From: Eubacteriales bacterium
Lineage (GTDB): Bacteria > Bacillota > Clostridia > Lachnospirales > Lachnospiraceae
Assembly (NCBI GenBank): GCA_030536755.1
Contig: JAUNPJ010000008.1
Coordinates: 1-64,000, forward strand
Reading direction: 5' to 3'
Length of the DNA stretch: 64,000 nt
The notes below the pieces were generated by a model. The model ran no database searches. It saw only the letters and a list, made by a program, of their open reading frames with translations, and was not told the origin of the DNA. A program made the position numbers and the translations under genes. Positions 20,149 to 33,986 of the stretch are shown piece after piece. Each line of letters begins with the position of its first letter. The first letter of the stretch is position 1.

Positions 20149-20406
20149 ATGAACCTTGCAAAAATTTCTTCAAACGGTCAGATCACAGTTCCGGTTGAAA
20201 TCCGCCGTCTGCTCGGTCTGAAATCTGGTGATAAAATTCTGTTTTTGCAGAAACAAAATGGTGAAATTGTAGTCAGCAATGCCTCCGCCCAGGCAATCCG
20301 CAAAGCACAGGCTGCCTTTTCCGGTGTGGCTGAGGAAATGGGTGTCTATAATGAAGATGATATTCAGGCACTTGTGGACGAAGTACGGTACGGAAAGGAA
20401 AGATAA
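20149..20406 (+). CDS. AbrB/MazE/SpoVT-type antitoxin
   Basis: An 85-residue protein with an N-terminal swapped-hairpin AbrB domain (AKISSNGQITVPVEIRRLLGLKSGDKILFLQKQNGEIVV) and a C-terminal helical tail that would bind the toxin. It starts after AGAAAGGA and lies two bases before the PIN-domain gene. This is the standard layout of a type II antitoxin and probable autorepressor. Confidence 0.88.
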   Translation: MNLAKISSNGQITVPVEIRRLLGLKSGDKILFLQKQNGEIVVSNASAQAIRKAQAAFSGVAEEMGVYNEDDIQALVDEVRYGKER

Positions 20407-20408
20407 TT

Positions 20409-20807
20409 ATGCGGATTCTGATTGATACAAACATTCTTTTTTCTGCATTGCTCTTTCCCCGGTCAAAGCCCGCAAAGGCTCTGCTCTATATTGCCCAGAA
20501 CCACGAAATGGTTCTCTGTGACCGCAATATAGCAGAGCTGCGGGACATCCTGAACCGTAAGGCACCCAAATATCTGCCGGATGCAGAAGTACTGCTTGCA
20601 GAAATGTCCTATGAGCTGATCCCTGCAGTTGACCATGCAGAAAAACTGATACGTGATGCAAAAGACCAGCCAATCCTGAATGCCGCCATCGTCTCCGATG
20701 TAGATGTGATCCTGACCGGAGATAAAGACTTTTTAAGTCTCGATATGGAACATCCAAAATGTATGACGGCTGCACAGTTCTTTGAGTATGAAGGCGTAGA
20801 GGAATGA
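20409..20807 (+). CDS. PIN-domain toxin (VapC-like ribonuclease)
   Basis: A 132-residue PIN-fold protein starting MRILIDTNILFSALLF, with Asp6 and the conserved Asn of the PIN core, a central Glu in IAELRDIL, and acidic residues in ILTGDKDFLSL. These form the acidic pocket of an Mg-dependent RNase in the family annotated as putative toxin component, PIN family. It is coupled to the AbrB-type antitoxin and followed directly by a terminator, so the pair is a self-contained cassette. Confidence 0.88.
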   Translation: MRILIDTNILFSALLFPRSKPAKALLYIAQNHEMVLCDRNIAELRDILNRKAPKYLPDAEVLLAEMSYELIPAVDHAEKLIRDAKDQPILNAAIVSDVDVILTGDKDFLSLDMEHPKCMTAAQFFEYEGVEE

Positions 20808-21010: not shown

Positions 21011-21100
21011 TTGTGATGTAATGAGCATTGTGGTATAATATACTCAGTCGATAAGAAAGGAAGTCTTTTATTATGAGAGAGTTAGACCACAATGCTCATT
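21011..21100 (+). promoter_or_regulatory. tnpA promoter inside a 15-bp inverted repeat that brackets the start codon
   Basis: TTGTGA (21011-21016), 17 bases, TATAAT (21034-21039) form the promoter. AATGAGCATTGTGGT (21020-21034) is exactly reverse-complemented at 21086-21100, just inside tnpA. Transcripts starting upstream of the element could fold and bury the ribosome binding site and start, while the element's own transcript lacks the left arm. Confidence 0.7.
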
Positions 21101-21489
21101 CAGTTTTTCTGTTGTATTATCACCTTGTTTTGGTCGTAAAATACCGACGAGATGTCTTTGACGATACGGTTTCTGACCGCGCTAAGGAAATCTTTTCTTA
21201 TATCGCACCAAGGTATGGCATTGAGGTTGATGAGTGGGATCATGATGGTGATCATATTCATGTGATGTTCCGGGCTCAGCCAAAGAGTGAACTCAGCAAG
21301 TTTATCAATGCTTACAAAAGTGCCAGCAGCAGACTCCTGAAAAAAGAATTCCCTGCGATTCGAAAAAAACTGTGGAAGGAAACGTTCTGGAGTCAGAGCT
21401 TCTGCCTGCTCACAGCCGGTGGAGCACCGATCGAAGTGATCAAAGAATATATAGAAACGCAGGGGGAGAAACATGGGAAAGAGTCATAA
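21073..21489 (+). CDS. tnpA: IS200/IS605-family TnpA transposase (HUH, Y1)
   Basis: A 138-residue single-strand transposase with the HUH motif HIH (His61, His63) in DHIHVMF and the probable catalytic Tyr126 in KEYIETQG. Length and motifs match intact Y1 transposases. Start ATG has AAAGGAAG upstream. It overlaps tnpB by 17 bases. It cuts and rejoins single-stranded element ends in the lagging-strand template. Confidence 0.93.
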   Translation: MRELDHNAHSVFLLYYHLVLVVKYRRDVFDDTVSDRAKEIFSYIAPRYGIEVDEWDHDGDHIHVMFRAQPKSELSKFINAYKSASSRLLKKEFPAIRKKLWKETFWSQSFCLLTAGGAPIEVIKEYIETQGEKHGKES

Positions 21490-22585
21490 AGCCTTCCAAT
21501 TCCGAATTTATCCAACCGTAGAACAGAAAGAATTGTTTGCGAAGACATTTGGGTGCTGTAGATTCCTCTATAACCAGATGCTTTCAGATAAGATGGAAGA
21601 ATATAAGAAGACTGGGAAAATGTTGAAAACGACACCGGCTGCCTATAAAAAAGAGTTTCCGTGGTTGAAGGAAGTAGATTCTCTTGCCCTGGCGAATGTG
21701 CAGCTGCATCTGGAACGAGCCTACAGAAATTTCTTTGAACGTCCGGAGAGTGGTTTTCCGAAGTTCAAATCAAAGCATCACAGCCGTAATGCATACACGA
21801 CGAATCTGGTGAATGGGAATGTTCAACTTTTTGGGAATGGGATCAAACTCCCCAAAGCTGGTGTGGTAAAGGCGAAGATCCACAGACAGATTCCGGAAGG
21901 ATTTCGGATGAAGGCTGTGACAGTCAGAAGACAACCTTCGGGGAAGTATTACGTCAGTATACTCTTTGAGTACTGTGTGGATGAAAACCAAGTCCAAGAC
22001 AGAGAAAGAAGAGAACGGAAGGTGATCGGTATCGATTATGCGATGCATGGACTAGCCGTATTTTCCGATGGAAGTAAATGCGAATATCCGGATTACTACA
22101 GAAGGTCAGAAAAACGACTGAGCAGGGAGCAGCGAAAGCTGTCACGTTGTAAGCACGGAAGCTCGAATTATCAGAAACAGAAGAAAAAGGTGGCACGGTG
22201 CCATGAGAAGGTCAAAAACCAGAGAAGAGATTTTCATCATAAGTTGAGTCGAACATTGGCGGAAGAGTATGAGGTTGTTGCTGTCGAGGATCTGAACATG
22301 AAGGCAATGAGTCAATGTTTGAATTTTGGGAAGAGTGTTGCGGACAACGGCTATGGGATGCTGCTGAATATGCTCGGTTATAAGCTGGAAGAGCGTGGAG
22401 GAAAGCTGGTAAAGGTAGATCGGTTTTTTCCATCCAGCAAAAGGTGCAGTCAGTGTGGAAAGGTCAAACAGGTATTACCATTGTCAGAAAGGGTATATCG
22501 ATGTGAGTGTGGTTACACGAATGACAGGGACGTGAATGCGGCGATTAATATCAGGGAAGAAGCATTACGGCTGCTCTCTGTATAA
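21473..22585 (+). CDS. tnpB: TnpB RNA-guided nuclease (IS605 OrfB)
   Basis: A 370-residue protein with an N-terminal helix-turn-helix/wedge region (FQFRIYPTVEQKELFAKTFGCCRFLYN) and a RuvC-like domain. All three catalytic acids are present: Asp188 (GIDYAMHG), Glu272 (AVEDLNM) and Asp353 (NDRDVNAAINI). The zinc ribbon CSQCGK ... YRCECG lies between the last two. Length and motifs indicate an active nuclease guided by RNA from the element's right end, cutting sites that match the guide and retaining the element after excision. Confidence 0.93.
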   Translation: MGKSHKAFQFRIYPTVEQKELFAKTFGCCRFLYNQMLSDKMEEYKKTGKMLKTTPAAYKKEFPWLKEVDSLALANVQLHLERAYRNFFERPESGFPKFKSKHHSRNAYTTNLVNGNVQLFGNGIKLPKAGVVKAKIHRQIPEGFRMKAVTVRRQPSGKYYVSILFEYCVDENQVQDRERRERKVIGIDYAMHGLAVFSDGSKCEYPDYYRRSEKRLSREQRKLSRCKHGSSNYQKQKKKVARCHEKVKNQRRDFHHKLSRTLAEEYEVVAVEDLNMKAMSQCLNFGKSVADNGYGMLLNMLGYKLEERGGKLVKVDRFFPSSKRCSQCGKVKQVLPLSERVYRCECGYTNDRDVNAAINIREEALRLLSV

Positions 22586-28440: not shown

Positions 28441-28481
28441 TTGACGAAATCTTGACGAATATTTTGACGAAATCTTGACGA
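28441..28481 (+). promoter_or_regulatory. Four helically phased TTGACGA repeats (0A-like boxes)
   Basis: TTGACGA starts at 28441, 28452, 28464 and 28475, i.e. spaced 11, 12 and 11 bases. The first three fit the Spo0A box consensus TGNCGAA exactly; the fourth ends in G. The array lies about 130 bases before a gene encoding a stand-alone Spo0A-type DNA-binding domain. Confidence 0.75.
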
Positions 28482-28612
28482 GTTTCTTTACCGATTTTTG
28501 GAATTTATCGATTAATATGAATGCAGAGTAAATTTTGCTCAAGACTGCGCAGTGTATGAAAAGGACGGAATACATATTTTACATCATGTAAGAAAGGAAA
28601 GGGATAAGAGGA

Positions 28613-28963
28613 ATGAAAAATATATATGGAATAATCAGAAAACTTGGAGTTACTTCGAAATATAATGGATACTTTTTTTTGACGGATGCGATTCATCTGG
28701 CTATGGATTCTCAGGACAAATCTATAAAGATTACGAAAGACATTTATCCATGTCTGGCAAAAAAATACGAAACGACACCCATGAATATTGAACGAAATGT
28801 TCGTACGGTTATTAACATCTGCTGGGAAACAAACAAGGAAGGGATGGATGAGATTGCCGGTCATTCTCTGAGCTGCAAGCCAACAAACAGTGAATTTGTA
28901 AAAATGGTTGTTTCCTATCTCGCAGAAGAACAGACAGGTGCCAGACCTGTTTTTGCTCAATAA
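28613..28963 (+). CDS. Stand-alone Spo0A C-terminal DNA-binding domain protein
   Basis: A 116-residue protein that covers the Spo0A effector domain: IRKLGVTSKYNGYFFLTDAIHLAM..., KDIYPCLAKKYETTPMNIERNVRTVINICW (the helix-turn-helix region) and KPTNSEFVKMV near the end. It has no receiver domain, so it cannot be controlled by phosphorelay in the normal way. Spo0A itself is about 260 residues. Purine-rich AGGAAAGGG lies upstream of ATG 28613. Spo0A-box-like repeats lie on both sides of the gene, which suggests autoregulation or competition with Spo0A at sporulation-type promoters. Confidence 0.82.
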   Translation: MKNIYGIIRKLGVTSKYNGYFFLTDAIHLAMDSQDKSIKITKDIYPCLAKKYETTPMNIERNVRTVINICWETNKEGMDEIAGHSLSCKPTNSEFVKMVVSYLAEEQTGARPVFAQ

Positions 28964-28966
28964 AAA

Positions 28967-28983
28967 TGTCGAAAGCTGTCGAA
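28967..28983 (+). promoter_or_regulatory. Pair of consensus Spo0A boxes
   Basis: TGTCGAA occurs at 28967-28973 and again at 28977-28983, ten bases apart, just after the stop of the Spo0A-C gene and ahead of the orphan response regulator. Confidence 0.6.
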
Positions 28984-29137
28984 CGAAAACTCGAATTTCG
29001 CATTGACTTTGCTTTAAATTACATTGTATAATGTTCTGCGTCAGATCATGACAAAGGGTGAAAGAGAAAGGAAATTGAAGCAGCAGTATTGAAATATACT
29101 TTTTTGGGTATGCTGGTTTATATAATATGTGAGATTG

Positions 29138-29177
29138 AGGCTTATCAGATAGAGATACTTGGTAAGCCTTTTTTACT
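29138..29177 (+). terminator. Terminator before the orphan response regulator
   Basis: AGGCTTA pairs with TAAGCCT, followed by TTTTTTAC. It lies between the Spo0A-C gene and the regulator, so the two are separate units or the regulator is attenuated. Confidence 0.65.
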
Positions 29178-29228: not shown

Positions 29229-29906
29229 ATGGAAACAATAGCTGTAATTGAAGATAATGTACTGACTGGAGACATGATAACAGAGATTTTAATGAATGAG
29301 GGATTTCGCGTGATTCGGGCATATTCAGGAACGGAAGCGTTATATCTGCTGAAACAAAACAGGCCGGATCTGATCTTGCTGGATTTGGTTCTTCCCGGTC
29401 TTGACGGCGAAGGTGTTCTGGAACATATTAATGGGATACCGGTCATCATACTGAGTTCAAAAGCAGAAGTGGAGGACAAGATCAATCTTTTGAATGAGGG
29501 TGCCTGCGATTATATAACCAAACCGTTTAATGCAGGAGAATTGATTGCCCGTATTTTGGTTCAGTTACGCAAAGAAAAAAATTCAAGTAATTACATAAAA
29601 AAATCAACCTTATCTGTTGGCAATTTAACACTGGATCCTTTGTCTTTGAACTTAATTGTTGAGTCACAAGCCGTAAAAGTGACAAAAACGGAATGTGCGA
29701 TTCTCAAACTGTTGATGTCCCATTCCAAGTATACCATTTCCAGGGATTTACTGCTGGATAATATCAGTTATGAAACACCGGATTGCACGGAGAAATCCCT
29801 GAAGCAGCATATTTATAATTTACGAAAGAAATTGTGCAGTATTAACAGCTCCATCCAGATCGAAACTGTTCGGGGTGTTGGGTTTAAATTGTCTGAAAAC
29901 ATATAA
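29229..29906 (+). CDS. Orphan OmpR/PhoB-family response regulator
   Basis: A 225-residue protein with receiver (IEDN at 7-10; Asp52 in ILLDLVLPG; Lys in DYITKPF) and winged helix (VTKTECAILKLLMSHSKYTISRDLLLDNI...LKQHIYNLRKKL...VRGVGFKL). ATG 29229 has GAGGTG four bases upstream; an in-frame ATG at 29217 is possible. No kinase gene lies next to it. The C-terminal DNA-binding part diverges from the regulator at 5864. Confidence 0.88.
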   Translation: METIAVIEDNVLTGDMITEILMNEGFRVIRAYSGTEALYLLKQNRPDLILLDLVLPGLDGEGVLEHINGIPVIILSSKAEVEDKINLLNEGACDYITKPFNAGELIARILVQLRKEKNSSNYIKKSTLSVGNLTLDPLSLNLIVESQAVKVTKTECAILKLLMSHSKYTISRDLLLDNISYETPDCTEKSLKQHIYNLRKKLCSINSSIQIETVRGVGFKLSENI

Positions 29907-31360: not shown

Positions 31361-31379
31361 GAGAAAGAGGAAATTGAGC

Positions 31380-33986
31380 ATGATACCAAAGAAAAAGATT
31401 TTAATTGTAGAGGACAATGCACTCAACCGGGCTATGCTGAGTGAAATCCTGGCTGATGAATATCAGGTGCTGGAGGCTGAAAATGGACGGGCGGCACTGG
31501 ATGTCCTGAGCCAGTATGGGGATAGCATCGCTCTCATCCTTTTAGATGTTATGATGCCGGTGATGGATGGATATACTTTTTTGGATCACGTAAAAAAGGA
31601 AGATAAACTGGCGCTGATTCCGGTGATCGTGATGACTCAGAGTGACAGTGAGGATGACGAGGTATCTGCGTTGGCCCACGGTGCAACGGACTTTGTACCC
31701 AAGCCTTATCGGCCTCAGGTTATTCTGCACCGGGTGGCAAGCATTATCAAGCTGCGGGAGACTGCGGCCATGGTCAATCAGTTTCAATATGATCGGCTTA
31801 CCGGACTTTACAGCAAAGAGTTTTTTTATCAGAAAATGCGGGAGACACTGCAGAATGATCTGGAGCAGGAGTATACCATTATTTGTTTTAACGTTGAAAA
31901 TTTCAAGCTGTACAACGACACTTTTGGTGTAAAGGCGGGAGACCGTCTGCTGCAGGAGATTGCTGCCAGCCTGCGTGAGCAGATTGGTCAAAAAGGAATC
32001 TGCTGCAGGTACAGCGCGGACCGTTTTCTATGTCTGAAGGAGCGAAAACAGGAACAGGAAGATCGTAAACGCTTTTTCGGCAGTATATTTTTGGAAAACG
32101 ATGGGAACAGGGGAAGTGTGTCTGCAAAGTGGGGCATCTATGAGGTGACGGACCGTTCTATACCTGTGGAACAGATGTGCGACAGAGCTCTGTTGGTCGT
32201 TGACAGCATCAAGGGACAGTACAATCAGCATTTTGCTGTTTATGATGATGCGCTTCGAGGCAAGCTGCTGCGAGAGAAGAATATTACTGATGCTATGGAG
32301 ATTGCGTTGGCAGAAGAACAATTTATTGTTTATTTCCAACCGAAGTACAATCTGAATGAAAATACCATGGCTGGAGCGGAAGCGCTGGTGCGCTGGATAC
32401 ATCCAGAGTGGGGATTTATGTCACCGGGAGATTTTATCCCTCTGTTTGAGAAGAATGGTTTTATTACCCGGCTGGATCAGTATGTCTGGGAGCATGTATG
32501 TGCCCAGCTTCGCAGTTGGAAAGAGAAAGGATATCCGCTTTTGCCGGTATCCGTGAATGTTTCTCGTTTAGACATTTATCAGATGAATCTGGCAGAGTTG
32601 ATTCTTGGAATTGTGCAGAAATACGGCATTGATCCTGAGTATCTGCATCTGGAGATTACAGAGAGTGCCTATGCAGAAAATCCTGGAAAAATCATCAAAA
32701 CTGTGGATGAGCTGCGCAATCTGGGCTTCATCATTGAGATGGATGATTTCGGCAGCGGCTATTCCTCTCTGAATATGCTGAACCAGATGAACCTTGATAT
32801 TTTGAAGCTGGATATGAAATTCATCCAGAATGAAATGGAGAAACCAGCGGAACAGAGCATTCTGCGTTTTATCGTGAATCTGGCTCACTGGATGAATCTG
32901 AGTGTGGTGGCGGAAGGTGTAGAGACCCGAGAACAGATGGAACGTTTGAGGGAAATGGAATGCGATTATGTTCAGGGATATTATTTTGCAAAACCCATGC
33001 CCATCGAAGAATATGAAGAATTATTGGAAAGCCAATCTTCCCAATTTGTGGTTCAGCCGATGAAGGTATCACAGAAGGAGACCAGTATGCGCAGTCTGCT
33101 GGTGGTAGATGAAGATGATAAATACAGAGCAAAAGTCTGCAATACGTTTGAGGGACATTATAGAGTTCTGGAAGTCTCCGATGCGCAAAGTGCGCTTGCA
33201 CGTATCATGGAGTATGGATGTGACGCAGTTTCTGCTATCATCCTGAGTATGACGATTCCCGAAAACGGCGCTGATTCGCTTCTGAAAATTTTGCGGCAGA
33301 ATCCGAGATTCTGGCATATTCCTGTGCTGGCTACCGTGCAGGGCGGAGAAATAATGGAGAAAACATCATTGGCATGGGAAACAGATGATTTTCTTTGCAA
33401 GTGCCATCCACAGCGAGATTTGTACAAACGGGTATCACGTTTGATTAGAATAGCAGCGTCTCATGAGCGTGAGAGCACTTTGCGGGATGAGGCCAGTCGT
33501 GATTATCTGACTGGTCTGCTTAACCGCCGCGGGCTTCAGATTGCCATGGAGTCTTTGCGGAAAGAGGATTTGCCTTTGGCGGTATGCCTGTTTGATCTGG
33601 ATGATTTGAAAAAAGTGAATGATAACTTCGGTCATGATGTGGGAGATCGGATTCTTCGGCAATTTGCCGATCTTCTCCGTCGTAAGACCCGCTCGGAAGA
33701 TATTCTTTGTCGTTACGGCGGAGATGAATTTGTAGTCATTTTGAGGCGTTTTGGCGATAAGGCGGCTGTGTTGAAAAAAGGGGAAGAGCTTTGCCGGGCT
33801 TTTCGCGAGTACTTTGAGGAAGAAAATTTTTGTGCGGCCTGTTCCGGGGGCATTGCTCTGTGCGGAGTAGATGAGAAAACGTCTGTTAAGTTGATTGAGT
33901 GCGCAGATCAGGCTCTGTATTGTGCCAAGAGAGAAAATAAGGGACACTGCTGTCTATGGAATGGTGATAAAGATAGTATTGAATAA
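31380..33986 (+). CDS. REC-GGDEF-EAL-REC-GGDEF c-di-GMP turnover protein, copy 1
   Basis: An 868-residue cytoplasmic protein. Residues 1-125 are a receiver with Asp56 (ILLDVMMPVMDG). About 140-285 is a degenerate GGDEF (YSADRF replaces GGDEF). About 300-545 is an EAL phosphodiesterase with intact EALVRW, DDFGSGYSSL and AEGVETR. About 570-690 is a second receiver whose acceptor Asp is Ser (AIILSMTIP). About 705-860 is a GGDEF cyclase with intact CRYGGDEF. It should both make and break c-di-GMP, gated by phosphorylation of the first receiver. ATG 31380 has AGAGG nine bases upstream. It shares its architecture with the protein at 43485. Confidence 0.9.
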   Translation: MIPKKKILIVEDNALNRAMLSEILADEYQVLEAENGRAALDVLSQYGDSIALILLDVMMPVMDGYTFLDHVKKEDKLALIPVIVMTQSDSEDDEVSALAHGATDFVPKPYRPQVILHRVASIIKLRETAAMVNQFQYDRLTGLYSKEFFYQKMRETLQNDLEQEYTIICFNVENFKLYNDTFGVKAGDRLLQEIAASLREQIGQKGICCRYSADRFLCLKERKQEQEDRKRFFGSIFLENDGNRGSVSAKWGIYEVTDRSIPVEQMCDRALLVVDSIKGQYNQHFAVYDDALRGKLLREKNITDAMEIALAEEQFIVYFQPKYNLNENTMAGAEALVRWIHPEWGFMSPGDFIPLFEKNGFITRLDQYVWEHVCAQLRSWKEKGYPLLPVSVNVSRLDIYQMNLAELILGIVQKYGIDPEYLHLEITESAYAENPGKIIKTVDELRNLGFIIEMDDFGSGYSSLNMLNQMNLDILKLDMKFIQNEMEKPAEQSILRFIVNLAHWMNLSVVAEGVETREQMERLREMECDYVQGYYFAKPMPIEEYEELLESQSSQFVVQPMKVSQKETSMRSLLVVDEDDKYRAKVCNTFEGHYRVLEVSDAQSALARIMEYGCDAVSAIILSMTIPENGADSLLKILRQNPRFWHIPVLATVQGGEIMEKTSLAWETDDFLCKCHPQRDLYKRVSRLIRIAASHERESTLRDEASRDYLTGLLNRRGLQIAMESLRKEDLPLAVCLFDLDDLKKVNDNFGHDVGDRILRQFADLLRRKTRSEDILCRYGGDEFVVILRRFGDKAAVLKKGEELCRAFREYFEEENFCAACSGGIALCGVDEKTSVKLIECADQALYCAKRENKGHCCLWNGDKDSIE

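What the first reader, a model, noticed from the sequence alone, without database searches (positions are those of the whole stretch)
28441..28983. Stand-alone Spo0A DNA-binding domain flanked by phased 0A-like boxes
A 116-residue protein equals the Spo0A effector domain without the receiver. About 130 bases upstream lie four TTGACGA repeats at 11/12/11-base spacing; three fit TGNCGAA. Just after the stop are two consensus TGTCGAA boxes ten bases apart. One match is common by chance, but four in 41 bases in helical phase is not. The simplest reading is an unphosphorylatable Spo0A mimic that controls itself or competes with Spo0A, possibly tuning sporulation. The sequence shows the repeats and domain; the regulatory logic is inference.
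Basis: partly seen in the sequence, partly recalled or inferred. Interest (0 to 1): 0.8.

Follow-up and report, generated by a model that had tools for sequence, protein, structure and literature searches.

The report
Receiver-less Spo0A under OmpR-type control
A bacterium, likely of the gut family Lachnospiraceae, carries a small protein that is only the DNA-binding half of the sporulation master switch Spo0A, and the striking repeat array in front of its gene is likely a docking site for a neighbouring regulator of another family, not for Spo0A as first thought, so a different signal would switch this Spo0A look-alike on.

Summary
In detail: a 116-aa stand-alone Spo0A DNA-binding domain (28613-28963), four TTGACGA repeats upstream, two TGTCGAA boxes after the stop. 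Reading the upstream array as Spo0A boxes does not survive comparison. In six other array-bearing genes the repeat is essentially TTKAC, and the G that Spo0A needs is near random (5 of 24 units). All 7 array-bearing genes adjoin an OmpR/PhoB-family response regulator (here 29229-29906); none of 96 other scorable stand-alone genes has the array. Six loci with a ~60%-identical regulator and no detected Spo0A_C gene carry the same array before an ABC-transporter gene. So the array is most likely the regulator's site, driving the Spo0A-like gene. The downstream pair is a better Spo0A site: 10-bp tandem, kept in 4 of 6 loci (one with 2 mismatches) at a near-fixed distance before a sigma-A-like promoter; but a terminator follows before the regulator gene, and in two relatives that promoter precedes a ~100-aa unknown protein. 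Binding was not tested.

The parts
28441..28491 (+). TTGAC direct-repeat array: four TTGACGA units (28441, 28452, 28464, 28475) and a degenerate fifth (TTTAC, 28487); predicted OmpR-type regulator site
28513..28518 (+). candidate -10 element TAATAT of the Spo0A-like gene (weak, inferred)
   Evidence: TAATAT present in five of the seven array loci; the consensus scan calls no promoter here
28613..28963 (+). stand-alone Spo0A_C protein, 116 aa, no receiver domain
28967..28983 (+). tandem 0A-type boxes TGTCGAA-AGC-TGTCGAA, 10-bp spacing
   Evidence: kept in 4 of 6 compared loci (0, 0, 0 and 2 mismatches)
29003..29032 (+). sigma-A-like promoter TTGACT-N18-TATAAT, 19 bases after the second box
   Evidence: 11 of 12 matches; number of promoter-like sites in the region is at the shuffle mean; conserved
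29138..29175 (+). terminator-like hairpin with T run, between that promoter and the regulator gene
   Evidence: MFE -17.6 kcal/mol, z -4.9; also in G002 and G180; the scan, limited to loops of 3-8, does not list it
29229..29906 (+). OmpR/PhoB-family response regulator, 225 aa (ATG at 29229; the ORF list gives 29217)

Best explanation
The gene at 28613-28963 encodes only the DNA-binding half of Spo0A, and the TTGAC array in front of it is likely the binding site through which the neighbouring OmpR/PhoB-family response regulator (29229-29906) would switch it on. Shown: the domain, the array, its linkage to the regulator across genomes, the same array beside the regulator's relatives where no Spo0A-like gene was detected, and the tandem 0A-type boxes with a promoter-like sequence downstream. 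Inferred: the regulator, once phosphorylated, binds the 11/12-bp direct repeats and activates; the Spo0A-like protein, needing no phosphorylation, then binds 0A-type boxes including its own downstream pair, adding to or competing with Spo0A there. In many other stand-alone genes the promoter region carries 0A-type boxes instead, so this clade looks like a promoter swap that put a Spo0A look-alike under a different signal.
For: Array tracks the regulator: a four-unit TTKAC array with at most 1 mismatch in 20 positions is upstream of 5 of 5 stand-alone genes with the regulator's orthologue within 1.5 kb downstream (one of them, G472, broken), plus two others (G002, whose contig ends inside the regulator gene; G452 copy 2, directly behind the regulator), out of 105 stand-alone loci; of the other 98, two had too little upstream sequence and 96 scored 4 to 9 mismatches; the lowest of 510 shuffles scored 3. 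The ~60%-identical regulators in six genomes (G144, G328, G305, G449, G448, G453) have no Spo0A_C gene by tblastn in the 5-13 kb held around each, and 6 of 6 have the array directly after the regulator (0, 0, 2, 1, 2, 2 mismatches by the same score), with a -10-like hexamer about 9 bases behind the last unit, before an ABC ATPase gene (the G144 one scores best with TIGR03740, 230.6 bits, below its cut-off of 309.75). In four of these the kinase ORF behind it matches HisKA and HATPase_c over cut-off. A more distant regulator (49% identical) with TTTAC units before an ABC ATPase is in G436. Both regulator groups share a nearly identical helix TPDCT[EQ][KR]SLKQH[IV]xNLR. The 0A-critical G5 is G in 5 of 24 units outside the window; single changes of G2, C4 or G5 lowered Spo0A-DBD affinity about tenfold (PMC3485338, passages). 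In G472 the Spo0A-like gene is broken while array and regulator are kept. The isolated Spo0A effector domain binds DNA without phosphorylation (PMC3485338, passages). Downstream pair: 0 mismatches in window, G002, G452a, 2 in G180; 36/36/37/36 bases from first box to -35.
Against: No binding or expression was measured. The loci are related, so counts are not independent events. In the window itself three of four units do fit TGNCGAA, and the window and G002 are two of only three close-clade proteins with R instead of H at the R214 position, which would fit a site also read by the Spo0A-like protein. A third regulator copy in G452 (contig 5, 87% identical) has no array (best score 5 mismatches) and no Spo0A_C gene in the 8 kb held, though its contig starts 298 bases upstream. 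The three-unit pattern alone is no rarer than its control in 64 genomes. The tandem-box promoter runs into a terminator-like hairpin before the regulator gene, so a feedback arm onto the regulator is weak. The -10 of the Spo0A-like gene is a guess.
Confidence: 0.65

Rival explanations
1. One reading: the array is a set of phased 0A boxes through which the Spo0A-like protein or Spo0A controls the gene.
For: Three of four units fit TGNCGAA in the window; recognition-helix E, R, R kept; stand-alone genes elsewhere carry oriented TGTCGAA upstream.
Against: G5 is near random in orthologous arrays, G2 is T in 6 of 24 units, spacing is 11/12 rather than 10, and the array is absent from 96 scorable stand-alone genes without the regulator but present beside the regulator's relatives where no Spo0A_C gene was detected.
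Confidence: 0.1
2. Dual-use site: in the window and G002 lineage the regulator's array has drifted so that some units are read by both the OmpR-type regulator and the Spo0A-like protein.
For: Window and G002 alone in the seven array-bearing loci have R at the R214 position and have the largest share of TGNCGAA units (3 of 4 and 1 of 4, versus 1 of 20 in the other five).
Against: One lineage only; the window's two half-arrays share an identical 18-base stretch, so a local duplication could explain the shared G; 11/12-bp spacing does not suit a 10-bp Spo0A tandem (recalled).
Confidence: 0.15
3. The Spo0A-like gene is passive cargo or a decaying relic of Spo0A with no regulatory role.
For: One copy, G472, has at least one premature stop.
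Against: 219 protein hits, a stand-alone match in 53 of 64 genomes of one other genus, E and R of the recognition helix kept and oriented boxes upstream.
Confidence: 0.08

Closest known systems
Spo0A effector domain (Spo0A_C; solved as 1FC3 and 1LQ1)
   Same: Query residues 4-106 aligned, E 6.5e-17 and 3.3e-16; recognition-helix E-R-x-x-R kept
   Different: No receiver domain; one- and three-residue deletions before the PTNSEF motif; domain spans residues 4-103 of 116
OmpR/PhoB-family regulators that bind direct repeats about one helical turn apart (PhoB, PhoP, SpaR; repeat geometry recalled)
   Same: Receiver plus winged-helix domain; adjacent 11/12-bp direct repeats
   Different: Repeat is TTKAC; best NCBIfam matches (PhoB 153 bits) stay below their cut-offs; no kinase gene seen beside the window copy
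Lantibiotic-protection type regulator-ABC-kinase operons
   Same: Relatives of the regulator sit before an array, an ABC ATPase and a kinase gene
   Different: In the window clade a Spo0A-like gene, not a transporter gene, follows the array; the ATPase is below the curated TIGR03740 cut-off
Tandem 0A boxes at Spo0A promoters (abrB-like; layout recalled)
   Same: TGTCGAA pair at 10 bp upstream of a sigma-A-like promoter
   Different: Lies behind a Spo0A-like gene, before a short transcription unit

Membership tests
Spo0A_C domain family | Profile score over cut-off across the domain | tested here: met
   106.7 bits against 25, profile 1-104 of 104
Spo0A_C domain family | Base-contact residues of the recognition helix (E213, R214, R217; names and numbers recalled) | tested here: met
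   N-I-E-R-N-V-R aligned to R-V-E-R-A-I-R
Spo0A_C domain family | Binds TGTCGAA DNA | not testable with these tools
   needs gel shift or footprint
Spo0A (full response regulator) | Receiver domain and full-length score | tested here: not met
   TIGR02875 78 bits against 200, profile 151-257 of 262 only
0A boxes (upstream array) | G2, C4, G5 of TGNCGAA kept in orthologues | tested here: not met
   outside the window G5 in 5 of 24 units, G2 replaced by T in 6 of 24, C4 kept in 21 of 24
0A boxes (upstream array) | 10-bp tandem spacing (recalled) | tested here: not met
   11/12/11
0A boxes (downstream pair) | Consensus, 10-bp spacing, conservation | tested here: met
   0, 0, 0 and 2 mismatches in window, G002, G452a, G180; absent in G452b, single box in G472
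OmpR/PhoB-family response regulator | Response_reg plus Trans_reg_C domains | tested here: met
   82.1 and 62.0 bits, both over cut-off
OmpR/PhoB-family response regulator | Binds the TTGAC array | not testable with these tools
   linkage only

The most novel reading that the evidence does not exclude
Receiver-less Spo0A paralogues form a widespread, undescribed second layer of Spo0A-box control in Lachnospiraceae, normally wired into loops by 0A-type boxes at their own promoters, and in this clade captured by an OmpR-type envelope-stress regulator through a promoter swap, so that an antibiotic- or envelope-type signal reaches Spo0A target genes without any phosphorelay.
Probability: 0.35. Interest if true: 0.78.

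Novelty: new variant of a known kind. Interest (0 to 1): 0.57.

Why it matters
Surveys use the Spo0A_C domain to recognise Spo0A (PMC6136694, passages), yet 53 of 64 genomes of one genus, inferred to be Blautia, hold a short gene with that domain alone. If these proteins bind 0A boxes they would alter how sporulation and stationary-phase genes respond in these bacteria, and the window clade shows how such a look-alike can be re-wired to another signal. The site assignments make clean, testable predictions.

Tried and rejected

Limits of the counts: the 105 stand-alone loci are those with an open frame of at most 200 codons among 139 unique Spo0A_C-like places (tblastn with the window protein, E <= 1e-6) in the loci fetched; not every stand-alone match was fetched, and the list is cut. 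Seven of the 105 have 166-200 codons and may include odd Spo0A genes; with a 165-codon limit the results stand (TGTCGAA 30 of 96, array 7 of 98). Control upstreams (257) are of other genes in the same fetched loci, some probably inside operons. The protein search admits only candidates of 0.55 to 1.75 times the query length, so could not have listed full-length Spo0A.

Full report
What is there. The window (contig 39 of a 3.84-Mb genome in 145 contigs) holds a 116-aa ORF at 28613-28963 that is the Spo0A effector domain alone (Pfam Spo0A_C 106.7 bits; 1FC3 and 1LQ1 by sequence). The NCBIfam model for whole Spo0A reaches 78 of a required 200 bits and only profile positions 151-257. The genome also has a full-length Spo0A (contig 24, 154 bits, open frame 287), a more distant match in a 170-codon frame (contig 125, 65 bits) and one below cut-off (contig 52, 22.7 bits). 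The recognition helix reads N-I-E-R-N-V-R, so the three positions known from Spo0A (E213, R214, R217, recalled) are kept.

How widespread. Of 219 protein hits the best 120 are listed; all 120 carry PF08769, and all but one (188 aa) have 104-147 aa, but the tool admits only lengths near the query's. In 397 genomes of the family 261 have a match to the query; the list is cut and holds both stand-alone genes and full-length Spo0A. In 64 genomes of one other genus, inferred to be Blautia, 54 have a match at E <= 1e-19, and in 53 of these a match lies in a frame of 184 codons or less; 63 of 64 have some Spo0A_C match. Among the 120 listed proteins the R214 position reads H in 91, R in 23 and was not found in 6.

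The upstream array. I aligned the upstream regions of seven genes (window, G002, two copies on G452 contig 19, one on G452 contig 45, G180, G472). All share the repeats in register (units). Position six of the unit, which is G5 of a putative TGNCGAA box, is G in 4 of 4 units in the window but A7 C4 G5 T8 in the 24 units of the other six loci; G2 is T in 6 of those 24, C4 is kept in 21. Published work says Spo0A contacts G2, C4 and G5, and each single change lowered affinity about tenfold (PMC3485338, passages read). The conserved part is TTKAC with a following A-rich stretch, not the 0A box.

What it tracks. In these loci the next or previous gene is an OmpR/PhoB-family response regulator; it is 80-88% identical to 29229-29906 in G452, G180 and G472, where the Spo0A-like proteins are 65-76% identical to the window's (86% in G002, whose regulator gene is cut by the contig end). 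Among 105 unique stand-alone loci (open frame <= 200) the four-unit array with at most one mismatch is found in 7, and all 7 adjoin that regulator; of the 98 others two had no scorable upstream sequence and 96 scored 4 to 9 mismatches; 510 shuffled regions scored 3 or more. Conversely the regulator's ~60%-identical relatives in six genomes (three of 397 family genomes; three of 64 in the inferred Blautia genus) have no Spo0A_C gene by tblastn in the 5-13 kb held, while 6 of 6 have the array directly behind the regulator gene at 0 to 2 mismatches, ending about 9 bases before a -10-like hexamer of an ABC-transporter ATPase gene. In five of the six a membrane-type ORF and a kinase-like ORF follow (the G328 contig is only 5.1 kb and its far part was not inspected); four of the kinases were scanned and match HisKA and HATPase_c, the one membrane ORF scanned only a permease family below cut-off. 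A more distant case, a 49%-identical regulator with TTTAC units and an ABC ATPase, is in G436. The recognition helices are nearly identical across both main groups. I conclude that the array is the regulator's site. That it activates is inferred from its position and from the family (recalled).

Counter-evidence. The three-unit pattern alone is not specific, though in G452 and G472 its only matches are these arrays. A third G452 regulator copy on contig 5 has neither array (best score 5) nor Spo0A_C gene in 8 kb, with 298 bases upstream of it available. The window and G002 proteins have R where the other five array-bearing copies have H, so a double use in this lineage is possible.

The downstream boxes. 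TGTCGAA-AGC-TGTCGAA (28967-28983) stands 19 bases before TTGACT-N18-TATAAT (29003-29032). The pair and the promoter recur with 0 mismatches in G002 and G452a and 2 in G180, first box to -35 at 36, 36, 37 and 36 bases; G452b lacks both, G472 has a single TGTCGAA near the regulator's start. In G452a and G180 this promoter precedes a ~100-aa ORF of unknown family (47 homologues; found in no other locus held, nor in the window); nine of its homologues' longest-contig lengths equal those of listed Spo0A_C homologues against 0 to 3 for eight shifted comparisons. In the window and G002 that ORF is absent, and the promoter leads to a strong hairpin with a T run (MFE -17.6 kcal/mol, z -4.9) before the regulator gene. 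So the boxes would control that short unit first; control of the regulator would need read-through.

The wider family. In an unbiased 7-mer count TGTCGAA is the top word upstream of 55 distant stand-alone genes (17 loci, shuffled 1.2; reverse strand 1), and GTCGTAT and TGTCGTA are the top two words in 47 close ones (TGTCGTA 24, shuffled 0.3 to 0.5; reverse 0), usually running into a -10-like sequence. Pooled: TGTCGAA 30 of 103 forward, 1 of 103 reverse, against 6 of 257 control upstreams forward and 10 reverse. Whether Spo0A or the stand-alone proteins read these boxes is open; the residue-box association is confounded by ancestry.

Mechanism. Best reading: signal, OmpR-type regulator, TTGAC array, stand-alone Spo0A domain, 0A boxes. 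The first links rest on linkage and conservation, the last on homology and on the published behaviour of the isolated domain (PMC3485338, passages). None was measured. PMC12090719 (passages) and PMC11210211 (passages) were looked at and added nothing on stand-alone domains.

Noticed in passing
L101:4448-4753, L105:6909-7202: Conserved ~100-aa protein (starts MYLSTLFLSE or MYLSTIFLSD) between the Spo0A-like gene and the regulator in G452 and G180; 47 homologues, no Pfam family over cut-off, no fold match.
   Followed up: partly
window 29039-29175: Predicted ~135-nt RNA from the tandem-box promoter to a terminator-like hairpin, where two relatives have the small ORF; possible relic or small RNA.
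   Followed up: partly
upstream of stand-alone genes in the genus of G452 (e.g. L075-L100): TGTCGTA present in 25 of 48 close-clade loci; 21 of the 25 also hold a TCGTA run into a -10-like hexamer.
   Followed up: partly
L193 (G436 contig 3), G463 contig 14: TTTAC variant of the array, in G436 between a 49%-identical OmpR-type regulator and an ABC ATPase; the G463 match was not opened.
   Followed up: partly
window 31374-33986; L101:1844-3499: Response-regulator GGDEF-EAL protein near the cassette in the window, and a relative (69% identical over 557 columns) just upstream of it on G452 contig 19.
   Followed up: no
L107:5230-5445: G472 copy of the Spo0A-like gene has at least one premature stop while array and regulator are kept.
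   Followed up: partly
window 21073-22585: IS200/IS605-type pair: Y1 transposase (PF01797) and TnpB-like OrfB (PF01385, Cas12f1-like TNB).
   Followed up: partly
window 20149-20807: MazE-type antitoxin domain (PF04014) followed by a PIN-domain protein (PF13470), likely a toxin-antitoxin pair.
   Followed up: partly
genomes G111, G409, G324, G335: 8 to 11 matches to the Spo0A-like protein in one genome, an unusual expansion.
   Followed up: no
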